From positions 1,137,989 to 1,201,988 of the forward strand of contig NZ_JH597773.1 of NCBI RefSeq assembly GCF_000243335.1: 64,000 bases of DNA. Reading direction: 5' to 3'. The DNA is from Leptonema illini DSM 21528 (GTDB taxonomy: Bacteria; Spirochaetota; Leptospiria; Leptospirales; Leptonemataceae). Under the pieces are notes generated by a model. That model was not told where the DNA came from and searched no databases. It saw only the letters and a list, made by a program, of their open reading frames with translations. Position numbers and translations under genes: made by a program. This document shows positions 35,433 to 48,149 of this stretch, one piece after another; position 1 is the stretch's first letter, and each line of letters opens with the position of its first letter.

Positions 35433-36232
35433 AAAACAAAGAAGAAGCATCAGCAGAACAACAGATCACACCGATTGCCGGACGCCTGAAGAATCATACA
35501 AATGCCCGCGTCGGCCTGCGACGCAGCGGCATCTCCATTTCAACCGACGAGCTTCTTAATTTTCAGCTCGACTTCGCCCGGGCCCGGGACGCCGTTCAAC
35601 GCGAGATCGATGAAACGGATGTCTTTCAGAAATTGCAGGCCATCGACGGACGGGCATTGCTCGTTTACAGCGCCGCTTCATCATTGCAGATGTATTTGCA
35701 GCGTCCCGATCTCGGCCGTATTCTCTCGGTGGAATCAGAAGCGCAGTTAAAAGCTCGCAGTTCTGAGAAATCCGACATCTGCATCGTGCTCACGGGAGGG
35801 TTATCCTCAGCGGCAATTCATCAGGCGTTTCCACTGATAGAGCGACTGGCAGCGGCGCTACAGGGCGAAGGCACGACCGTGGCTCCTCTTGTGCTGGCCC
35901 ACCGCGGACGTGTGGCGATCGGTGATCCGATTGGAGCACTATTAAAGGCTCAGCTTTCGCTCGTTCTTGTAGGAGAACGCCCTGGTATGAGTTCGAGCAA
36001 TAGCCTCGGCGCTTATCTGACCTATGCGCCGCAGCCTGGAAAAACCGACGAAAGCCGTAACTGCCTTTCGAATATTCGCGAAGGCGGTCTCTCCGTGGAC
36101 GAGGCGGTCTTTACCCTGCTCTGGTTGATACGCGAATCCATCCGATTAAAACTGAGCGGCGTGCAGCTCAAGGATCGGTCGCGAGAAAGCCTAACGCTCA
36201 AAGACGGTGCGAAACCGATCGCTGACGAATAG
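35429..36232 (+). CDS. eutC: Ethanolamine ammonia-lyase small subunit
   Basis: 267 aa, start GTG 35429 overlapping the eutB stop (GTGA). EutC motifs: TNARVGLRRSGISISTDELL, QLDFARARDAVQ, VLTGGLSSAAIHQAFPLIER, ALLKAQLSLVLVGERPGMSS and SLGAYLTYAP. Binds cobalamin at the interface with EutB. The 3' end overlaps the convergent YiiX-like gene by 42 bp. Confidence 0.96.
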   Translation: MKNKEEASAEQQITPIAGRLKNHTNARVGLRRSGISISTDELLNFQLDFARARDAVQREIDETDVFQKLQAIDGRALLVYSAASSLQMYLQRPDLGRILSVESEAQLKARSSEKSDICIVLTGGLSSAAIHQAFPLIERLAAALQGEGTTVAPLVLAHRGRVAIGDPIGALLKAQLSLVLVGERPGMSSSNSLGAYLTYAPQPGKTDESRNCLSNIREGGLSVDEAVFTLLWLIRESIRLKLSGVQLKDRSRESLTLKDGAKPIADE

Positions 36233-36820
36233 ATCACCGGGCGAAACGGCGAGTTCGTTAAGCGGCGGCATGCCTCCGTAACGCTGCTTCATCTTCTGTT
36301 GAACGACGGGATGCTTGAGGTCGTAGTCCGAGAATCTTTTCAAGGGAACGGTTTTTAATCCGACAAGGTCATAGAGCTTCCAGACGACTTCAGAACAGTA
36401 CAGGCGATCATCGGACCAGCGAAAGTGGCCGTCGTAGTTTCGTCCCGCCCAGGCCTCTGCCTTTTTTTTCATGACGGCGATCTGCGACGCATCGGGCGCA
36501 CCGTCTGCATAGCGCTTTACGACAAAGTGAGATCGCTCGCCGTTTTTTATCCATTGACTGAGATCGACAAAGCGTACCGGCTGCACCGCCTCAAAGACGA
36601 CCCATCGCCCTGCTCTCTTAAATATGATGCCTACATGACTGTACTTCGAGCCAGTCGCAAGCTGGATGGCCTGGCTCTGCGAAGATCGCGAAATCTGAAA
36701 AACGACGTCTCCTTCACGCAGCTCGTCAAAGGGAGCAGCGAAAAGCTGTAGAGACAGGAATACGTTAAGGGAGTAGAGAAACAGAAAGCCTGACGTAGTT
36801 CTGGTTCTTCGAAGCATCAC
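36191..36820 (-). CDS. YiiX-like permuted papain-fold hydrolase, exported
   Basis: 209 aa. Signal peptide ~aa 10-29 (SGFLFLYSLNVFLSLQLFAA). ELREGDVVFQ and SKYSHVGIIF give the conserved His region; LYCSEVVWKLYDLVG gives the catalytic Cys. The family (DUF830/YiiX) has a circularly permuted NlpC/P60-like fold and probably hydrolyses an amide or ester in the periplasm. Substrate not known. Confidence 0.82.
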   Translation of the reverse strand: MMLRRTRTTSGFLFLYSLNVFLSLQLFAAPFDELREGDVVFQISRSSQSQAIQLATGSKYSHVGIIFKRAGRWVVFEAVQPVRFVDLSQWIKNGERSHFVVKRYADGAPDASQIAVMKKKAEAWAGRNYDGHFRWSDDRLYCSEVVWKLYDLVGLKTVPLKRFSDYDLKHPVVQQKMKQRYGGMPPLNELAVSPGDLFVSDRFRTVFER

Positions 36821-36959: not shown

Positions 36960-38882
36960 TTACTCGTACATCGATTCAATCAGCTTTGCATAGCGCTCCG
37001 TTACGACGTGACGCTTCACAGAAAGCTTGCCCGTCAGCTCGTCACCCTGCTCAAAAGGCTTCGGAAGCAGGCGGAAGTCGACGACCTTCTCGAAGCTTTT
37101 AAAGCCCTGTTCGGCCGAGATCAGCCGCTTAACCTCATCGCGAATCACGGACAGCGCCTCAGGGTCGATGGCCAGCGTCGTGAACTCCTTATGCCCCGGA
37201 AACTTTTCAATCTCGGGCACGATCAGCGCCGTCAGATACTTCTTATCCTGACCGACGACGATCAGCTGACGGATATAGGGAGACTGAAGCAACGTGTTCT
37301 CGATCGGCACCGGCTCTACGTTCTCGCCGTTCAGAAGAACGATCGTCTCTTTAGAGCGACCTGTAATCTTGAGGCAATCGTTATACGTCATCATACCGAG
37401 GTCGCCAGTATTGAACCATCCGTCTTTAAGAACCTTATCGGTGGCCGCCTGATCCTTGTAATATCCCTTCATAATCTGCGGGCCTCGAACGTGGATCTCG
37501 CCCTTAACGCCGCGACGTTTCGGGCCGCCTGCTTCGGTCGTGAAGAGCAGTTCGCCTGTATTCAGGTCGGTGATACGCAGATCGGTGTCGGGATAAATCG
37601 GACCGACAGTACCCGGCACAAGCAGATCAGGCGTTCGCACGGAAAGCACGGGAGACGTTTCGGTTAATCCATATCCTTCGAGAACGGGAATGCCCGCATC
37701 GTTAAAGAAAAGATCGACGTGATACGGCAGTGCTCCGCCGCCTGAGCACGTGCCGCGAAGCGCACCGCCCGTCGCCGCTCGAATCTTTTTCAGTACGATG
37801 CGATCGAGTAAGAAGAACGGCACGGCGAGAAGAAGCACCTCGACTATAGACCAGAGAGCACGGAACATCGAAAGAAAGGACGATCGCCCGGTAATATCAA
37901 GCTCGTTCCCTTTCAAGAAGCGCAATGCTCCGCGAAAACGACGCGAAACGGAAAGCGTGAGAGCGAAAAGACCGCGACGGACCGGGGATGCCTTCTCAAG
38001 ATTCGTAAGAATACCCGCATATACGCTTTCCCACAGGCGCGGCGCCGATGCCATGAAAGTCGGAGCCACGTTTTTCATGTCATCGCGAAGGGACCGAACG
38101 TTCGAATAATACGTGCAGCATCCGCGACCGAGGGCGATCATTTCGAAGACGCGCTCGAAGATATGCCATACAGGCAGAATGGAAAGCACACGATCGTCGG
38201 TGCGGATTGGCACAGGGATGCGCTCCAGCTGCGAAATCATGTTCGCATGCGTGAGCATGACGCCTTTAGGGGCGCCTGTCGTCCCCGACGTATAGATCAG
38301 CGTAAAGAGATCGTCAGATGAAAGACCGGCCATGTGCTCTTCAACACGTCGATCGCCCTGATGACGCAGCTCGCGTCCCCGGCGGATAAGATCGGCCTGC
38401 GCATAAACGTCTGCATCCTGTCCGCTCATCAGAATGAGCGTTACGCCCTTGATCAGGTCGGGGTGACGGCGCATCTTTTCGAGTACGGTCGTATTCTCGA
38501 CAAAGAGAAAGCGCATGCCTGAATGCGGCACGATGTGTCGGATGTCGGGATCGGTCACGTCGGCGCCGCGCGGCACGTCGGCGGCTCCGGCCAGCAATAC
38601 GGCCAGATCGGCCTGGATCCATTCAAGGCGGTTCTCGGCGAAGATACCGACATGATCGCGCGGCTTCAATCCGAGATCGATCAGCGCCGTCGCCAGGGAC
38701 TCGGCCTGCTCGCGCAGTTGCGCATAGGTCGTCATCTGAAAATGTCCGCCTTCGCGTGTGGCAAAGGCCGGATTCTCTGCATAACGTTCGGCGCTGTCGA
38801 GGAAGAGATGAGCGACGCTGCGATGCGATGCGCTCTGTTTTTGAGAGGCCGGCGCCTCTCGTGCCATTGTTTGAGTCGTCAT
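36960..38882 (-). CDS. Long-chain fatty acid-CoA ligase (AMP-binding)
   Basis: 640 aa, start ATG 38882 with GGAG upstream. Motifs of the adenylate-forming family: LIYTSGTTGAPKGVMLTHAN (P-loop A3), GYGLTETSPVLS (A5), GWFNTGDLGMMTYNDCLKIT (A7) and GRSKETIVLLNGENV (A8). A hydrophobic segment around aa 340-365 (LWSIVEVLLLAVPFFLLDRI) suggests membrane association, as in spirochaetal and eukaryotic-type long-chain ligases. Activates fatty acids for phospholipid synthesis or beta-oxidation, probably donating electrons later through ETF. Confidence 0.93.
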   Translation of the reverse strand: MTTQTMAREAPASQKQSASHRSVAHLFLDSAERYAENPAFATREGGHFQMTTYAQLREQAESLATALIDLGLKPRDHVGIFAENRLEWIQADLAVLLAGAADVPRGADVTDPDIRHIVPHSGMRFLFVENTTVLEKMRRHPDLIKGVTLILMSGQDADVYAQADLIRRGRELRHQGDRRVEEHMAGLSSDDLFTLIYTSGTTGAPKGVMLTHANMISQLERIPVPIRTDDRVLSILPVWHIFERVFEMIALGRGCCTYYSNVRSLRDDMKNVAPTFMASAPRLWESVYAGILTNLEKASPVRRGLFALTLSVSRRFRGALRFLKGNELDITGRSSFLSMFRALWSIVEVLLLAVPFFLLDRIVLKKIRAATGGALRGTCSGGGALPYHVDLFFNDAGIPVLEGYGLTETSPVLSVRTPDLLVPGTVGPIYPDTDLRITDLNTGELLFTTEAGGPKRRGVKGEIHVRGPQIMKGYYKDQAATDKVLKDGWFNTGDLGMMTYNDCLKITGRSKETIVLLNGENVEPVPIENTLLQSPYIRQLIVVGQDKKYLTALIVPEIEKFPGHKEFTTLAIDPEALSVIRDEVKRLISAEQGFKSFEKVVDFRLLPKPFEQGDELTGKLSVKRHVVTERYAKLIESMYE

Positions 38883-39042: not shown

Positions 39043-40119
39043 TCACAAGGACTTGCGGCGGCGGTACTCTTTAGGCGTGAGACCGGTTTCTTTCAAAAAG
39101 GCACGGTGAAACGAAGATCTGGAATTAAAGCCGGCGGCGAAGCCGATAGACAGGATGGTGCGCTCGGGCTCGTCTTCGAGAAGGCGGCAGGCCTCCTGCA
39201 CACGCCAGCGATTGACGTAATCCGAAAAGCTTTGCTGCATATGCACATTTAGAAGGTAGGATAGCCGGTCTACTGTCGTCGCCAGCTCTCGGGCCAGCGA
39301 GGCCAGCGTCAGATCTTCGTCGGCATATATCTTCTCTTCTCGCATGCGCTCATCAAGTTCGAGAGCCATGGCGTTGAGATCGAGGTCTCCCAGCTTGGCA
39401 CGACGACGGCGACGACGCTCCATCTCTTCCTGCAGCCCCTGAACGGCATTCGGATAACGACCCGATAACACAAAAAAGACGAACAGGTTAACGGGAAGAA
39501 GCAGAGCGCTGATACGAATCATCAGAAAGCTCGGAATCAAGAATCCGACCAGGCCGATCAGCAGATCGACGAAGAGCAACACATACACAAAGAAAACGGG
39601 AAAGAGACCCGAGGCCAGAAGCGCTCGATGGTTTCCTGTCGACCTGTACACATGCCAGCCGATATAGAGAAGATAGACGAGGAACGATAGCTTTGTCCCG
39701 ACGTTACCGGCGGCGACGAGCAGATGCACAAAGTCGTCCGCCTGGATTCCGCGCTCAAAGAACTCACGTTGCTCGGCATCACTCAGCATGTGAAAAACAA
39801 CAGGTACCGCTATGGCCAGGACGGGCAGAATCCAGTGATACCTCGATAGCCTTGCCGGCCCGAAAAGCCTGCGATAATGAAGCAGCATGAGCGGGCCGCC
39901 CGTATAGACGATCGGCAGATGCCATAGAAACAGCAGAGGCCAGCGCGCCGCCGCTCCTGAGAATACGTAAGCCCCCGAAAGCAGCCAGATGCCGGCGACG
40001 ACTAACGCAGCTGCCAGGGCACGATCACGTCCGGCTCGCGAAACGATAATCTGCAAACCCCAGATGCAGCTGAAGATGCCTCCGGAACTCAGCCAGTGTA
40101 TCTGTAAAGCGTCGTTCAA
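39043..40119 (-). CDS. Membrane-bound AraC-family regulator (7TM sensor + HTH)
   Basis: 358 aa, start TTG 40119 overlapping the protease stop (TTGA) with GAGGAT upstream. About seven helices in the first ~225 aa (LAAALVVAGIWLLSGAYVFS, WILPVLAIAVPVVFHMLS, LASGLFPVFFVYVLLFVDLL), then a DNA-binding AraC domain (~aa 255-355): FSDYVNRWRVQEACRLLEDE, ILSIGFAAGFNSRSSFHRAF, TGLTPKEYRRRK. The membrane domain probably senses an envelope signal. Last gene of a three-gene overlapping set. Confidence 0.9.
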   Translation of the reverse strand: MNDALQIHWLSSGGIFSCIWGLQIIVSRAGRDRALAAALVVAGIWLLSGAYVFSGAAARWPLLFLWHLPIVYTGGPLMLLHYRRLFGPARLSRYHWILPVLAIAVPVVFHMLSDAEQREFFERGIQADDFVHLLVAAGNVGTKLSFLVYLLYIGWHVYRSTGNHRALLASGLFPVFFVYVLLFVDLLIGLVGFLIPSFLMIRISALLLPVNLFVFFVLSGRYPNAVQGLQEEMERRRRRRAKLGDLDLNAMALELDERMREEKIYADEDLTLASLARELATTVDRLSYLLNVHMQQSFSDYVNRWRVQEACRLLEDEPERTILSIGFAAGFNSRSSFHRAFLKETGLTPKEYRRRKSL

Positions 40120-41033
40120 TCCTCAGTGCTCCACTGCGACGGATCATGCGTGACCGTATTGAGAGGAGTTCGCGCCACAAGCAAGGCAGTACCGACACAG
40201 CGCTCCTCGTCGGGATGCGCCTTGCGCCAGGCCTTCGCTCGCTCCAGATATTTATCCTCCCTGAACTCCAGATGCGGATGGCTCTGAAAATACTCCGATA
40301 CAGGATGCGGCGCCCGCTGTGTCTCGTTATCGCTCCGGTTCGGATCGTAATACGTGCGCAGGCGACGAAAGCTACGACCGAGCCCCGTCGGAGCGTACGA
40401 AGAGCTCTTGATATAGGCCCACGCATATTCGTCGGCCTCATTCTCCTGCGTCTTGCTATAGCTGTGACGCATCATCAGATTCATGGCAAAGTCGGCGATC
40501 TCGCCTAACGGCGCTGCTCCGATCTTCTTTGCGGCGATCTCAAGGCGCACGGCATCGATACAGTGCGAAAGCTCCACATGACCTACCTCATGCGCCAGCA
40601 CGGCCACAAGCTCGGATTCCGATTTCAGCGTTTCAAGAAGGCCCGACGTTACGACGACGACTCCGCCCGGTAAAGCGAAGGCATTGGGCGACCTGGTTTC
40701 AACTATAAAGGCCCTGTAACGAAAGCCTTTCTGTGTTCCGGCCGCAACCGTTTCGATCAGCGACTGCACATAGGCCTGATCGGCCTCTGTTCCTCCGTTG
40801 AAGGATTCGTAGCGCAGGGCGATGGCCTCTCCATACCTCGCCTCATCCACCTCATCGATCGGCAGCACGCGAGTCAGCGCCCGGTCCACGCGCTTGATCG
40901 GCTTCCCGAGAATTTGAAAGGCCGGCGCAAGCGTGCTCTCGAAGGGCAATCGTATCTCTGCTTTAGTGAGGGCGAAGACGAGCAAAGAGCCGCCTGCGAG
41001 CAATATAAGAAGTGCAATCGTTCTCAGATTCAT
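40116..41033 (-). CDS. M48-family metalloprotease, membrane-anchored
   Basis: 305 aa. N-terminal anchor (IALLILLAGGSLLVFALTKA). Zinc site HEVGHVELSHC (HExxH) and downstream ENEADEYAWAYI supplying the third ligand, plus AFALPGGVVVVTSGLLE typical of M48. Likely faces the periplasm and acts on envelope proteins (BepA/LoiP-like). Overlaps both neighbours by 4 bp. Confidence 0.9.
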   Translation of the reverse strand: MNLRTIALLILLAGGSLLVFALTKAEIRLPFESTLAPAFQILGKPIKRVDRALTRVLPIDEVDEARYGEAIALRYESFNGGTEADQAYVQSLIETVAAGTQKGFRYRAFIVETRSPNAFALPGGVVVVTSGLLETLKSESELVAVLAHEVGHVELSHCIDAVRLEIAAKKIGAAPLGEIADFAMNLMMRHSYSKTQENEADEYAWAYIKSSSYAPTGLGRSFRRLRTYYDPNRSDNETQRAPHPVSEYFQSHPHLEFREDKYLERAKAWRKAHPDEERCVGTALLVARTPLNTVTHDPSQWSTED

Positions 41034-44000
41034 GACTGTGGCTCCTTCGCTTCCGTAAAACGATCCTTGAAACGGTTATACAGAGAATTCATACCGAGCA
41101 TGAGCAGACCGACTCCGACAAAAACAAGGGCACGCGTAAGCGTGGAGCTTCGTGCAAGATCAAAGAAGATCAGGCGCAGCAGAGCGGCGCCGAGCGCAAC
41201 CATCGACAGAATGCGAAAATGACTTTCACGCAAGACGATACTTAACGAGAAGACGATGAAGATCAGAACGACCCAGAGCAGCGTCAGGAGCGCCTGATCA
41301 AAGGACCAGTAGAGAAACAGAGCAGCGCCGAGAAAGAGCGGGTCAAAGATCCATAGATTGCGGCGACCATCGACAAACGGCATCAGGCGAGCGACAACCG
41401 AAAACGGAAAGGGAACTTCGGTACCGGCGAACGGCCTTTCGCGCAGAAGAAGAATTGAGACGGCCACAAGCACAAGCATGGCGATCAATCCGGCAACCCA
41501 GTTTTGATCGGCAAAATGCGCCTGTGGCATCTCAGCCGTCGACGATAGAAATGTCAGATAAAATACCGACCACCAGAAGAGGAAAAGCCCGTACACAGAG
41601 AGACGACGCACCGATGCGAACATGCGTGCCAGAGCGACAAAAAGCGCCGGAGTGGCTGCATAGACGACCAGCGTCCAGCGTTCCGGAACTTCCAGCTCGA
41701 CGGCGAGAACGCCCATTGCAATGGCAAGTTCAAGATAATAGGTCTGGATGCGGCGCTCAAACCATCCGCCATCCGCTCTCTGCGCTGTGAACCAGAAGAG
41801 AAACACAGCAATCGCGAAAATCTGGATCAACACTCGCGCCGTCACCGGACCGAGATAGTATTCGCTCTGCAACTCAACGGCAACATGCCGGATCAAAAAG
41901 GCGAGAACGGCTATCGACCCTGTATAAAGCAGATGCCGCGACGTTATCCGATGTGCCTCTTTACCTGCCAGAAATCCGGAAGATTCCAGTGCGACGAGTG
42001 ACAGAAGCAGCCAGACGACGCCAGGAATCATCGCCGAGATCGGCTCGAAGATGCGATACGAGACGATGCCCAGAAACACCGCAAGCATCCATACGACGGG
42101 CACGGTCGGTGCGAACGATAAGGAAATCGAAGCGGGCCTCCAGAGCTGGAGCACAAACAGAGCGAGGAAAGGCAGCGTCCGCCAGAAGACGTTAACAGAA
42201 GACATCGCTCGTGCGTCTCCATCGAAAAGATGCACGAAAAGTACAGGGAGACCGATCAACAGGAAAAGGAAGATGCCATCTGAACCTGGCCTTCTCTCAA
42301 TACGCTGACGGCTCTGGATGGAATCCGACCGACCCATGCGAAACGGAACAAACACCAGCGTGGCGGCTAACGCCGAAACGGCGATCGTCGCCCAATAAAC
42401 GGGTAAGAGATAGACGAAGATCATCGATAGATACAATCCGTGTAAAATCTCGCCGAGCGCATGCCAGAGCGGGAAGGTCGCGTCGGGCACGCTCAAGAAA
42501 CGATGAAGCGCAAGTCCTGTCAGCAGCATTCCCGTGAGAAATGCAGCGCTGTGTAACGAATAGTCAAGGCGCATAACGCCAATACCGAGTACGAGACAGG
42601 AGAGGAGAAAATATAGCACCATGCCGCCTGCTGAATCCAGACGTCCGTCATGCAAATCGAGGCGAGCCGGCCTGAGAATGAGTAACACGGCCAGCATGAG
42701 AAAAGGGATGGCAAGGGAGGCAGATCTCCAGTAGAGGTCGTCTGCGGCATCGCCGCTGATCAGATGCGCCGCAAGCATCAGACCGGCCACAGGCAAGAAC
42801 AGCAGCACGGGCATCGCCGTCCGATCTTTCACGAATGGATGCGGTGCGAAGAACACCAGGCCGGCAACGGCAGAAACGGCTAGCGTGCTCCATTCGAAAG
42901 GCAGCAGAAGCGCATAGAGAGATATGAGAAAAGCGGCCTGTATAATCGAGCGAGCGACGCTCCATACCGACGAAAACTGAAGAAGCGGCTTCAGCGTTCG
43001 CTGATACAGAACAAGCGAGAAAAGAAGCAGGGCCAGCATCATGCCTGCCCGGCGAAGCAGCGCCGCATCATCGGAATATGGGATGTCACCGGTCGCCAAT
43101 GCAATAAAAATAACGCCCGACAGAAGATGCAGGAACAATCCGACGGATTCGAGGAACTCTTCGCCTTCCCGATTCATAAGAGCGAAAAAGAGCATCGTCT
43201 GCACAAACATGACGAGACCGACATGAAAGGCGTCCACCTGCCAGCGACCGAGCGTGAGAATACAGAAAAAGGCCAGGCCCTGAGCGATCAGCGTATCGGT
43301 GCGATACAGCCACAGAATGCGCAGGCGACGCGCATAACGCGCAAGCAGAAAGACGACGACGGTGGCCAGGGCAAGAACGATCGTATTCCATTTCGAGCCC
43401 GTTGCATACAGAAGGAAGCCGAGGCCGGCCGTCATCCAGTGAACAAGATGAGCGAAGAACGGAAGCCTCTCCAGCCGATCGCTTTGAAAGATCGCTCGAT
43501 AGTGTTGCAGCAGAGCGGCCGATGCGACCGCAGCCGTTGACAGGATGCCGATCAGTCGATTGATATCGGTCGGCTCCTGTGAAAGAAGCCCGGCATCGCG
43601 CATGGCGAAATAACGCACGACCTGATACAGAGCAAAGCTTACCGTACAGAGAACGGCCTGAAACTCCCAGCGAGATCGTGCCGCAAGCAAAACGCCTGCA
43701 AGGGCGACGCCCGCCGCCGTTAACAGTACGGGAAGAGCCGGCGGCAACACGGCAAGCACGATCAACGAAAGCAGCAGATGAAGCGAGGCGAAGGCCTCGG
43801 CGCTTGCACGATAGGCAAAGAAAAGGTTAACGAGCACTCCGACGATAATCAAAAGCAGGCCGGCCGTCTCATTCTCGATCCACTTCACGCCCGGAATGGC
43901 GACGGCGGCAAAACAGGAGACGAGCAACACGGCGCCGCCCGCAGCCGTTAACCATGACGAGAATTTCTTCCAGTCCGGTTTCTTTTCCAGATAGAAGGCG

Positions 44001-44590
44001 GCACCTGCAAGCGATCCGGCGATGGCGAGCATCATAAAGAAGCGAAACACGGGAGCAAGGGACAGAGCGGCGTAGACGCCGAGGAAGCCAAGCCCGGCCG
44101 TCAGAATCACGGCGCCAAGCATGCCAGTCCAGTTCTCGATAAGCTGCCTTTCGATCTTCTGCCACAGCTCGGATTTCTGTCGTGGAGGCGCCAGAATCGG
44201 TTTTGCTGCGGGGGCCTTCTCCAGCGGCATGCTCTGCTCGCTGCGCGCCTCCGCTGCTGCGTACTGCGGACGTTTCGCAGCAGGCTCGGCCGCCGCGACG
44301 TGTTCCTGCGGCTTTTGCGGCTCGCGAATCGGCCTTTCGACGGGCTCGCTCGTGCGAGAAGGTGGCGGCTCGCTTGCGACGGGTTTTTTCAACAGAACGT
44401 CTGCCGGTCTGCTTTCCGGGTGAGAGCTTTCGCGGATTCTTGCCGGAGCGCTTTCACCGCTCCCTTCAAGAATGCGCAGCCTTCGTTCTGCTTCGTCGAG
44501 ACGGGCGCGAAGCCCCTCTGTGCGCGAAAGCAGAACTACGATGAAGATACCGAGAACGATGACAATGAGGAAGAGAAAAGCAACAGACAT
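41030..44590 (-). CDS. DUF2339 giant polytopic membrane protein
   Basis: 1186 aa. A short N-terminal helix, then a coiled coil (RAEGLR/RLDEAERRLRILEG) and a Pro/Ala/Glu-rich linker (~aa 45-130), followed by about 30 hydrophobic helices to the C-terminus. The segment WQKIERQLIENWTGMLGAVI, leading into the first helices, is typical of DUF2339. Function of the family is unknown; it may be an envelope scaffold or transporter. First gene of the set with the M48 protease and 7TM-AraC regulator. Confidence 0.85.
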   Translation of the reverse strand: MSVAFLFLIVIVLGIFIVVLLSRTEGLRARLDEAERRLRILEGSGESAPARIRESSHPESRPADVLLKKPVASEPPPSRTSEPVERPIREPQKPQEHVAAAEPAAKRPQYAAAEARSEQSMPLEKAPAAKPILAPPRQKSELWQKIERQLIENWTGMLGAVILTAGLGFLGVYAALSLAPVFRFFMMLAIAGSLAGAAFYLEKKPDWKKFSSWLTAAGGAVLLVSCFAAVAIPGVKWIENETAGLLLIIVGVLVNLFFAYRASAEAFASLHLLLSLIVLAVLPPALPVLLTAAGVALAGVLLAARSRWEFQAVLCTVSFALYQVVRYFAMRDAGLLSQEPTDINRLIGILSTAAVASAALLQHYRAIFQSDRLERLPFFAHLVHWMTAGLGFLLYATGSKWNTIVLALATVVVFLLARYARRLRILWLYRTDTLIAQGLAFFCILTLGRWQVDAFHVGLVMFVQTMLFFALMNREGEEFLESVGLFLHLLSGVIFIALATGDIPYSDDAALLRRAGMMLALLLFSLVLYQRTLKPLLQFSSVWSVARSIIQAAFLISLYALLLPFEWSTLAVSAVAGLVFFAPHPFVKDRTAMPVLLFLPVAGLMLAAHLISGDAADDLYWRSASLAIPFLMLAVLLILRPARLDLHDGRLDSAGGMVLYFLLSCLVLGIGVMRLDYSLHSAAFLTGMLLTGLALHRFLSVPDATFPLWHALGEILHGLYLSMIFVYLLPVYWATIAVSALAATLVFVPFRMGRSDSIQSRQRIERRPGSDGIFLFLLIGLPVLFVHLFDGDARAMSSVNVFWRTLPFLALFVLQLWRPASISLSFAPTVPVVWMLAVFLGIVSYRIFEPISAMIPGVVWLLLSLVALESSGFLAGKEAHRITSRHLLYTGSIAVLAFLIRHVAVELQSEYYLGPVTARVLIQIFAIAVFLFWFTAQRADGGWFERRIQTYYLELAIAMGVLAVELEVPERWTLVVYAATPALFVALARMFASVRRLSVYGLFLFWWSVFYLTFLSSTAEMPQAHFADQNWVAGLIAMLVLVAVSILLLRERPFAGTEVPFPFSVVARLMPFVDGRRNLWIFDPLFLGAALFLYWSFDQALLTLLWVVLIFIVFSLSIVLRESHFRILSMVALGAALLRLIFFDLARSSTLTRALVFVGVGLLMLGMNSLYNRFKDRFTEAKEPQS

Positions 44591-46873: not shown

Positions 46874-47551
46874 CTATGCCGAGATCCGCTCGTCAATCTT
46901 TTTATCCAGGAAGGTGTTTAAGAACTCATGGATATGAGTGTATGACCGCACCTTACGGAATTGTTCCTCCTGTGATAGCAGGAGACTACCGACCCATCGG
47001 AGCACCTGGTCTGTCTGCGGCCTTGACCGTTTAACCCGGTTAAGCTGAGACCTGGGATTCGAAAATGCCGAATCGATCAGATTGGTTGTGTAGAAGGATG
47101 TTCTCAACTTCGGCGGCATATTGATGCGATGCAGCGTTAACAGCGTCTCTAAGCCCTCCTGAAGGCTCTGGGAGGCACTGTAGCTGATGGATTCGAGCCA
47201 TGATAGCACGGACCGCATCTCGCTTGCGACATCTTCGTAACTGTTCGCGCTGAATGCCTGCTTGTATCTCTTGCAGAATTCTGCATGATACTTCCGTGGG
47301 AGTTTTGCAAGGACATTTCTCTGTTTATGCAAGTAGCAGAGTTGAATTTCAGCTCTGCTACCGAAGAACTGTCTGGCCGCTTTTTCAAGAGCCTTTGATC
47401 CATCCATGACGACAAGCACACGATCTGTGAAGCGGATATCACGGCTCTCGATTGATTGAAGGACACTGAGTGCGCTATCAGCATTCTCTGTAGACCCCTC
47501 AGAAATGACCCAGAAAATGCTTGTTTCCGGCCGTATCGACCCCGAGAGCAA
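46874..47551 (-). CDS. IS256-type transposase, C-terminal part
   Basis: The real joined reading starts at GAG 47500 after a +1 shift from the upstream ORF and adds 208 aa. It holds the second catalytic Asp region VLVVMDGSKALEKAARQFFG, QLCYLHKQRNVLAKLP, and the Glu region SLQEGLETLLTLHRINMPP with YTTNLIDSAFSN. All are typical of mutator-type (IS256) transposases. Without frameshifting this part would need its own start, and no ribosome site is evident. Confidence 0.85.
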   Translation of the reverse strand: MLSGSIRPETSIFWVISEGSTENADSALSVLQSIESRDIRFTDRVLVVMDGSKALEKAARQFFGSRAEIQLCYLHKQRNVLAKLPRKYHAEFCKRYKQAFSANSYEDVASEMRSVLSWLESISYSASQSLQEGLETLLTLHRINMPPKLRTSFYTTNLIDSAFSNPRSQLNRVKRSRPQTDQVLRWVGSLLLSQEEQFRKVRSYTHIHEFLNTFLDKKIDERISA

Positions 47552-48149
47552 CGATTACGACAGAGCCGCCGAATACGATGCCATCAAGAACAATACACCA
47601 GAATGTCTGATCAGGAAACCTGCGTGAATTCAAATGATTGAGCGACTCACGGCTGGACTTCACAAACTCCCGCGAAACCGCACTCCGCGAAAGGCCGAGA
47701 GAGGCTTCTGTCTTTCTCAGCGTCTTTTCATAGTTCCGGGTGCTGATGCCCGCCAGCATCAGGCGCTCAACATGCTCGCGAAGATCAGAGCGATCCTGAA
47801 GGATCTCATATCGCTCCAGCTTCACCTCCTTGCCGTTACGTCGAGCTCTGGGCTTCTGGATGGCCACCCTTTCTCCATCGAGCACAATGGAACCTCGCTG
47901 GCTGCCGCCTCGATGAGCAAATCCACGGCCTCTCTTATGCTCCCCTGTCTTGCCGCATAACGTTTCGATTTCTTCGAGAATCAAAGCTCCTACGTAGCCG
48001 AGTGCAAATTCGCGCACACGGGAATCGAGGCTGGTTCGAATATAATCCCGAAACTCATCGGCCGCCAGGCTTTGTGTTTGACTGTTTTCTGCCCGTTCGT
48101 TCTTCTTCACTTGGAACCCTCCGTAAGGGAATGTGGTTGTTCGGCCCAT
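47499..48149 (-). CDS. IS256-type transposase, N-terminal part
   Basis: 216 aa. DNA-binding N-terminal half with SDLREHVERLMLAGISTRNY and LSRSAVSREFVKSSRESLN; first catalytic Asp in FWCIVLDGIVFGG; ends DTAGNKHFLGHF at TGA 47499-47501. A +1 shift at TTC-TGA gives LGHF-EGSTENADSALSVL, restoring the family consensus. Together the two ORFs make about 424 aa, the normal length. Confidence 0.87.
   Translation of the reverse strand: MGRTTTFPYGGFQVKKNERAENSQTQSLAADEFRDYIRTSLDSRVREFALGYVGALILEEIETLCGKTGEHKRGRGFAHRGGSQRGSIVLDGERVAIQKPRARRNGKEVKLERYEILQDRSDLREHVERLMLAGISTRNYEKTLRKTEASLGLSRSAVSREFVKSSRESLNHLNSRRFPDQTFWCIVLDGIVFGGSVVIVALGVDTAGNKHFLGHF

What the first reader, a model, noticed from the sequence alone, without database searches (positions are those of the whole stretch)
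39043..44590. Overlapping trio: giant DUF2339 protein, M48 protease, 7TM-AraC regulator
All three are membrane proteins, each overlapping the next by 4 bp. A polytopic protein of unknown role, a periplasm-facing protease and a membrane-embedded transcription factor in strict coupling suggests an envelope-sensing circuit in which proteolysis could control the regulator.
Basis: inference. Interest (0 to 1): 0.5.

Follow-up and report, generated by a model that had tools for sequence, protein, structure and literature searches.

The report
Conserved membrane giant and protease pair
Three overlapping membrane-protein genes in a spirochaete turn out to be two separately conserved gene pairs that happen to touch: a giant membrane protein paired with its own protease, probably guarding the cell envelope against lipid damage, and a membrane-bound gene switch that elsewhere sits beside fatty-acid genes.

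Summary
The three ORFs and both 4-bp overlaps are real, but the "trio" is cut wrongly. (1) DUF2339 + M48 is a conserved two-gene unit: this M48 subfamily occurs in 26 of 1060 genomes sampled from four phyla, directly after a DUF2339 gene in 25 of 26 (one at a contig end; and locus maps). (2) The 7TM-AraC gene belongs to the other side: in 10 of 30 order genomes it directly precedes a long-chain acyl-CoA synthetase gene, as here (about 0.05 expected). In 0 of 26 other DUF2339-M48 genomes with a visible downstream flank does it follow M48. So the M48/AraC overlap looks like a local juxtaposition, and protease control of the regulator is unsupported. DUF2339 is the Arc3A family, which protects Pseudomonas against phospholipase effectors; its usual partner Arc3B (DUF3999) passes the cut-off in 0 of 29 genomes tested, and M48 takes its place. 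Best reading: an Arc3-like envelope-defence module with a periplasmic metalloprotease partner. Gene organisation is shown; function is inferred. New variant of a known kind.

The parts
41030..44590 (-). DUF2339 (Arc3A-family) giant polytopic membrane protein, 1186 aa; first gene of the conserved pair
   Evidence: Pfam PF10101 34.3 bits, cut-off 33.6; 8 of 8 members of A1 match PF10101 at E<=0.001
42653..43141 (-). First copy of an internal tandem duplication in DUF2339 (residues 484-646)
   Evidence: Alignment score 162 against residues 656-824; 500 block shuffles mean 44.6, max 86
42119..42625 (-). Second copy of the internal duplication (residues 656-824)
40116..41033 (-). M48 metallopeptidase, 305 aa, N-terminal hydrophobic segment; constant neighbour of DUF2339
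   Evidence: Pfam PF01435 92.3 bits; subfamily profile A2 finds it directly after DUF2339 in 25 of 26 genomes (maps)
40578..40592 (-). Zinc motif HEVGH, residues 148-152; E197 and D201 also invariant
   Evidence: Columns H148, E149, H152, E197, D201 invariant in 9 of 9 sequences of A2; role of the motif recalled
41030..41033 (-). ATGA stop/start overlap DUF2339-M48
   Evidence: junction within -17..+4 nt in 23 of 26 loci measured
39043..40119 (-). 7TM-AraC one-component regulator, TTG start, 358 aa; belongs to the AraC-acyl-CoA synthetase pair, not to the DUF2339-M48 unit
   Evidence: Pfam HTH_18; AF2 model pLDDT 91.8; AraC->ACS in 10 of 30 genomes
40116..40119 (-). TTGA overlap M48-AraC, seen in this genome only
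   Evidence: no AraC homologue after M48 in 26 other genomes
36960..38882 (-). Long-chain acyl-CoA synthetase (AMP-binding + AMP-binding_C_3), conserved partner of the AraC gene, 160 bp downstream
   Evidence: 266.2 bits; relatives at E<=1e-150 in 28 of 30 order genomes

Best explanation
The locus is two conserved pairs that abut. Pair 1 is DUF2339 + M48: an Arc3A-like giant membrane protein and a translationally coupled zinc metalloprotease expected to face the periplasm. As in Pseudomonas Arc3, the DUF2339 protein most likely limits phospholipase or lysophospholipid damage to the envelope. The M48 protein stands where Arc3B (DUF3999) stands in other bacteria and most likely works with or on it in the periplasm, for example by destroying captured hydrolases or clearing damaged envelope proteins. 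Pair 2 is a 7TM-AraC regulator and the acyl-CoA synthetase gene it probably controls. In this lineage pair 2 has come to lie directly after pair 1, perhaps sharing its transcript and adding fatty-acid recycling. Shown: gene content, coupling, conservation, no DUF3999 hit over the cut-off, AraC-ACS pairing. Inferred: all function.
For: Pairing is reciprocal. M48 subfamily at E<=1e-40: 19 of 392 Spirochaetota, 4 of 297, 1 of 297 and 2 of 74 genomes in the phyla of an Acidobacteriota, a Syntrophorhabdus and a Marinamargulisbacteria record; DUF2339 directly upstream in 25 of 26, one at a contig end. Conversely 20 of 24 Spirochaetota with a strong DUF2339 hit have M48 next; Fisher p about 6e-30, not corrected for shared ancestry. 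In the Syntrophorhabdus record's phylum, 7 of 10 downstream neighbours of classical DUF2339 genes pass the DUF3999 cut-off. DUF3999 passes its cut-off in 0 of 29 genomes tested, 25 of them with DUF2339-M48. Arc3A defence function: PMC8926400 and PMC12663445 (passages). AraC-ACS.
Against: No experiment on any DUF2339-M48 pair is known to me. In P. aeruginosa Arc3A protects largely without Arc3B (PMC8926400, passage), so a partner swap does not show that M48 matters for defence. The window protein passes the Pfam cut-off by under 1 bit, and 4 of 8 further M48-type DUF2339 proteins fall below it. Profile alignment with the DUF3999-partnered group covers only the C-terminal 87 columns, so function may have drifted. 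The M48-type label sits on two DUF2339 lineages. The DUF3999 absence rests on a six-frame family search with no positive control genome (0 of 14); the same kind of search with PF10101 missed the window's own protein. Seven co-directional neighbours scanned outside one genus show no lipid gene. G118, G149, G348 and G360 have DUF2339 without M48 next door.
Confidence: 0.5

Rival explanations
1. One reading: DUF2339, M48 and 7TM-AraC form one envelope-sensing operon in which M48 proteolysis controls the regulator.
For: 4-bp overlaps of all three genes; all three membrane-associated.
Against: 0 of 26 other DUF2339-M48 genomes with a visible flank have an AraC homologue after M48; AraC pairs with acyl-CoA synthetase in 10 of 30 genomes; both pairs occur on different contigs in G001, G016, G017 and G020; M48 and HTH should lie on opposite sides of the membrane (inference).
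Confidence: 0.06
2. DUF2339-M48 is a general envelope quality-control pair: the M48 protease, like BepA or LoiP, degrades misfolded envelope proteins, and DUF2339 is its membrane scaffold or adaptor, without a lipid-specific role.
For: The best-matching named relatives of the M48 are quality-control proteases: BepA in PDB (E 1.3e-16; the top PDB hit 3c37, E 5.4e-29, is only called an M48 peptidase) and LoiP/BepA in NCBIfam; their role is recalled. The pair keeps different neighbours in different phyla.
Against: DUF2339 proteins tested in Pseudomonas act against phospholipase damage (PMC8926400, PMC12663445, passages).
Confidence: 0.3
3. All four genes are one functional operon in this organism: phospholipid-damage defence plus recycling of released fatty acids under a lipid-sensing regulator.
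For: Same strand; overlaps and a 160-bp gap; 11 of 22 mapped AraC relatives sit directly upstream of an acyl-CoA synthetase (9) or fatty acid hydroxylase (2) gene; aas genes neighbour arc3 in many bacteria (PMC8926400, passage).
Against: Arrangement found in one genome; two terminator-like matches in the AraC-ACS gap (weak: 18 found in the region, 12.4 in shuffles); the synthetase shows only the AMP-binding domains and no acyltransferase domain as in Aas.
Confidence: 0.15

Closest known systems
Arc3 (arc3A PA5114 DUF2339 / arc3B PA5113 DUF3999) of Pseudomonas aeruginosa
   Same: Giant polytopic DUF2339 protein encoded next to a partner gene; family spread across bacteria (PMC8926400, passages).
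   Different: Partner here is an M48 metalloprotease; DUF3999 passes its cut-off in 0 of 29 genomes tested. Sequence similarity is remote.
BepA / LoiP M48 envelope proteases
   Same: M48 family, HExxH plus E and D of the motif.
   Different: Far below the NCBIfam cut-offs (60.4 of 365 bits for LoiP, 59.2 of 570 for BepA); coupled to DUF2339.
Membrane-bound AraC-type one-component regulators, as in Saccharophagus degradans (PMC2386152, passages)
   Same: AraC-type regulators joined to membrane segments, expanded as paralogues (13 of 16 there) and several such membrane-bound regulators lying near the genes they may control.
   Different: There near polysaccharide-degradation genes; here near acyl-CoA synthetase. 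Whether the membrane domains are related was not tested.
7TMR-DISM bacterial receptors (recalled; mentioned in PMC1592074, passages)
   Same: Seven-helix membrane receptor joined to an intracellular output domain; 7TM receptors are expanded in Leptospira.
   Different: No Pfam match to a 7TM receptor family at E<=1.

Membership tests
Arc3 system | DUF2339 (PF10101) protein, the criterion used in PMC8926400 | tested here: met
   34.3 bits vs cut-off 33.6; 8 of 8 A1 members match at E<=0.001; but 4 of 8 further M48-type relatives lie below the cut-off
Arc3 system | Adjacent Arc3B (PF13163 DUF3999) | tested here: not met
   Adjacent gene is M48; 0 of 29 genomes over the cut-off, the window genome included. 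PMC8926400 reports Arc3A proteins in bacteria without Arc3B, so this is a usual, not a universal, feature
Arc3 system | Protects against phospholipase effector, prevents lysophospholipid accumulation | not testable with these tools
   Needs competition assays and lipidomics
M48 metallopeptidases (Peptidase_M48, PF01435) | Family profile and HExxH...E zinc site | tested here: met
   92.3 bits; H148, E149, H152, E197, D201 invariant in 9 of 9
LoiP or BepA equivalogs | NCBIfam curated score | tested here: not met
   60.4 of 365 and 59.2 of 570 bits
AraC/XylS regulators | HTH_18 domain | tested here: met
   70.2 bits vs 33.6; structural matches to AraC-type DNA-binding domains at Z up to 15.4
7TMR-DISM receptors | 7TMR-DISM domain profile | tested here: inconclusive
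   No Pfam match at E<=1, but HMMER filters drop weak matches and no solved member was compared
GPCR-like 7TM fold | Clear structural match of the membrane bundle | tested here: inconclusive
   Rows over the bundle at Z 12-13.6, rmsd 3.6-4.3, 200-220 residues, a level the tool warns may be common for helical bundles; Foldseek E above 0.1

The most novel reading that the evidence does not exclude
DUF2339-M48 is a second, proteolytic form of the Arc3 defence: the giant membrane protein captures phospholipase toxins or the damaged membrane patch, and the translationally coupled periplasmic metalloprotease destroys the toxin. Arc3B (DUF3999) and M48 are alternative partners exchanged across phyla.
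Probability: 0.25. Interest if true: 0.65.

Novelty: new variant of a known kind. Interest (0 to 1): 0.42.

Why it matters
DUF2339 proteins are widespread and, where tested, protect bacteria against phospholipase effectors by a mechanism its discoverers call unknown (PMC8926400, passages). A lineage in several phyla in which the partner is an enzyme of known chemistry gives a testable handle: inactivate the M48 zinc site and ask whether protection is lost, and look for its substrate. It also corrects the reading of this locus: the membrane-bound AraC regulator should be studied with the fatty-acid gene, not with the protease.

Tried and rejected
Strict trio hypothesis: rejected by comparison with 26 other DUF2339-M48 genomes and by the AraC-ACS pairing.

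AraC as divergent regulator of DUF2339: in G016-G019 a 7TM-AraC lies upstream and divergent. Considered as support, but these fall in a separate clade (96/87) whose shared feature is a downstream fatty acid hydroxylase gene; G007 and G008 have that pairing with no DUF2339 hit on the fetched stretch. A role in those four genomes is not excluded.

DUF2339 fold: the AF2 model is poor (pLDDT 56.2, pTM 0.39). Of 493 Foldseek matches one has E<=0.001, and the 50 listed have query TM-scores of 0.15 or less; no conclusion drawn.

Defence database: PADLOC gave no match for 5 proteins. Operon signals: 1 promoter-like site against 4.1 in shuffles; terminator scan weak.

Internal repeats: self-BLAST gave nothing in 12 proteins; direct alignment found one in the window protein. 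A first comparison used overlapping segments and matched itself; it was discarded.

Literature. One held paper holds both 'M48' and 'DUF2339', and it names them in separate gene lists (passages). Of 10 papers with DUF2339 I saw passages of four. No paper holds both 'M48 metalloprotease' and 'lysophospholipid'; two hold Arc3A with phospholipase and antagonism. The search added nothing on Arc3B. For membrane-bound AraC regulators, one search listed 12 of 26 papers; I opened one, PMC2386152 (passages), which shows that the kind is known. Searches gave nothing on this family.
Full report
Observation. The three ORFs and both 4-bp overlaps are exactly as described. Pfam assigns DUF2339, Peptidase_M48 and AraC HTH_18. 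The DUF2339 match is only 0.7 bits above the cut-off; all 8 aligned relatives match PF10101 at E<=0.001, while 4 of 8 further M48-type relatives score below the cut-off. The window lies in a 4.52-Mb genome in 3 contigs; that this is Leptonema illini is recalled, not shown. Phylum names below come from record titles or recall; the genome tool names none.

DUF2339 and M48 are a unit. In 30 genomes of the order, ten have a strong DUF2339 relative and the same ten have the close M48 relative (E<=1e-57), adjacent in every one; the best M48 hit in any other of the 30 is 4.6e-16. Two further genomes (G004, G006) have a very divergent DUF2339-M48 pair, whose M48 N-termini read to me like lipoprotein signals. 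G001 has a broken DUF2339 gene beside an open M48 frame. In 392 Spirochaetota, 38 have a DUF2339 hit at E<=0.001 and 24 a strong one (E<1e-30). Of the 24, M48 follows in 20 (in G114 M48 is cut by the contig end); G118, G149, G348 and G360 lack it. Of the 14 weak ones, G004 and G006 have M48, five mapped loci (G024, G026, G028, G029, G051) do not, and seven were not mapped.

The reverse search with the M48 profile at E<=1e-40 finds 19 of 392 Spirochaetota, 4 of 297 genomes in the phylum of the Acidobacteriota record, 1 of 297 in that of the Syntrophorhabdus record and 2 of 74 in that of the Marinamargulisbacteria record. The window genome and the three centre genomes were known carriers beforehand. 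DUF2339 lies directly upstream in 25 of these 26, counting the broken gene of G001; the last (G759) is at a contig end. Of 26 junctions measured, 23 lie between -17 and +4 nt; the exceptions are G010 (+40), G018 (+141) and G780 (+21). For G006 and G099 I took the ATG start (-14, -17) although a TTG start lies nearer the stop (+10, +7). For three loci the script found no start and I used my longest-ORF gene calls: G127 (+1) and G114 (-11), Margulisbacteria (+4). G001 and G1058 were not among the 26.

The AraC gene belongs elsewhere. I fetched 22 of the first 23 AraC relatives (G004:C64 was left out). Nine sit directly upstream of the acyl-CoA synthetase gene on the same strand, two upstream of a fatty acid hydroxylase gene, and eleven beside other genes. 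A further fetched locus, L094, gave no AraC hit in my gene calls. With the window this makes at least 10 of 30 genomes with AraC->ACS, in two families of the order, against about 0.05 expected. In the tree the window AraC falls on the side that holds all ten ACS-linked rows, though that branch (92/99) is not starred and three other rows lie there too. G001, G016, G017 and G020 have both pairs, on different contigs. In 26 other DUF2339-M48 genomes no AraC homologue follows M48. The divergent AraC upstream of DUF2339 in G016-G019 pairs with fatty acid hydroxylase. In that genus a PF00144 serine hydrolase gene precedes DUF2339 in the three loci scanned (G017, G018, G019) and a DUF374 acyltransferase gene lies beyond M48 in three loci scanned (G016, G017, G019). 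Elsewhere, seven co-directional neighbours scanned show no lipid gene; one locus (L105) has LpxB on the opposite strand.

What DUF2339 does. In P. aeruginosa the DUF2339 protein Arc3A is the factor most critical against the phospholipase effector Tle3. It prevents lysophospholipid build-up and associates with Arc3B, encoded next to it, although Arc3B itself contributes little and Arc3A homologues work without it (PMC8926400, passages). A later screen confirmed Arc3A in resistance to lipase effectors (PMC12663445, passages). The main text of PMC8926400 holds none of the words protease, peptidase, metallo-, spirochaet- or leptospir-.

Partner exchange. In the phylum of the Syntrophorhabdus record, 32 of 297 genomes have a PF10101 match. 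Of ten downstream neighbours chosen from 30 loci, seven pass the DUF3999 cut-off, two are below it and one is an ankyrin protein; none of the 30 loci, which carry only about 1.5 kb of flank, has this M48. The PF10101 search sees mainly the classical type: it missed the M48-type protein of the Syntrophorhabdus genome itself and the window's own. DUF3999 passes its cut-off in none of 29 DUF2339 genomes tested (25 with M48, four without; one sub-threshold hit in G001; no control genome rings). So M48 and DUF3999 look like alternative partners. Profile comparison of the two DUF2339 groups gives 99.5% probability, over the C-terminal 87 columns only. A quick tree puts M48-type proteins in two lineages, with long branches, so a single origin is open.

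Structure. The DUF2339 model is unreliable. Part of the window protein's length is a tandem duplication, residues 484-646 and 656-824. The AraC model is good (pLDDT 91.8): a helical membrane bundle (about 1-224) followed by a classic AraC DNA-binding domain (Z up to 15.4). The bundle resembles GPCR and adiponectin-receptor structures at Z 12-13.6, a level that may be only a common helical arrangement. Membrane-bound AraC-type regulators as such are known (PMC2386152, passages).

Mechanism. Shown: gene organisation, conservation, intact zinc motif, no DUF3999 over the cut-off. Inferred: DUF2339 limits phospholipase or lysophospholipid damage; M48 is its periplasmic partner; AraC senses a membrane or lipid signal and controls acyl-CoA synthetase. 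Verdict: the pair is a new variant of a known kind; the trio as proposed is not supported.

Noticed in passing
window 39043-40119: The 7TM-AraC regulator is predicted with high confidence as a helical membrane bundle of GPCR-like arrangement fused to a DNA-binding domain; the family has many paralogues in the order (up to 30 hits per genome) and several lie next to fatty-acid genes.
   Followed up: partly
window 42119-43141: Tandem duplication of a transmembrane module of about 165 residues inside the DUF2339 protein.
   Followed up: partly
window 46874-48149: Mutator-family (PF00872) transposase split over two overlapping reading frames, so probably broken.
   Followed up: partly
window 36191-36820: Permuted papain-like C92 (YaeF/YiiX) peptidase gene downstream of the acyl-CoA synthetase gene.
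   Followed up: no
L060 4257-12727 (and parts in L059, L061, L062): In one genus DUF2339-M48 lies among a PF00144 serine hydrolase, a fatty acid hydroxylase and a DUF374 acyltransferase gene, a lipid-flavoured neighbourhood.
   Followed up: partly
L067 6250-13385: A divergent DUF2339 gene of a second family of the order has no M48 beside it but a metallo-beta-lactamase-fold gene downstream and a sulfatase gene upstream.
   Followed up: no
L055 6500-10475: The DUF2339 gene of G001 carries an internal stop and a frame break near its end while M48 stays open: pseudogene or assembly error.
   Followed up: no
L152 10679-12310: A caspase-domain (PF00656) gene on the same strand, the second gene after M48.
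   Followed up: no
L068 8356-8994 (own genome, 2.84 Mb): A second, sub-threshold PF10101 match in the window's own genome (E 2.6e-5), in a 291-aa ORF.
   Followed up: no
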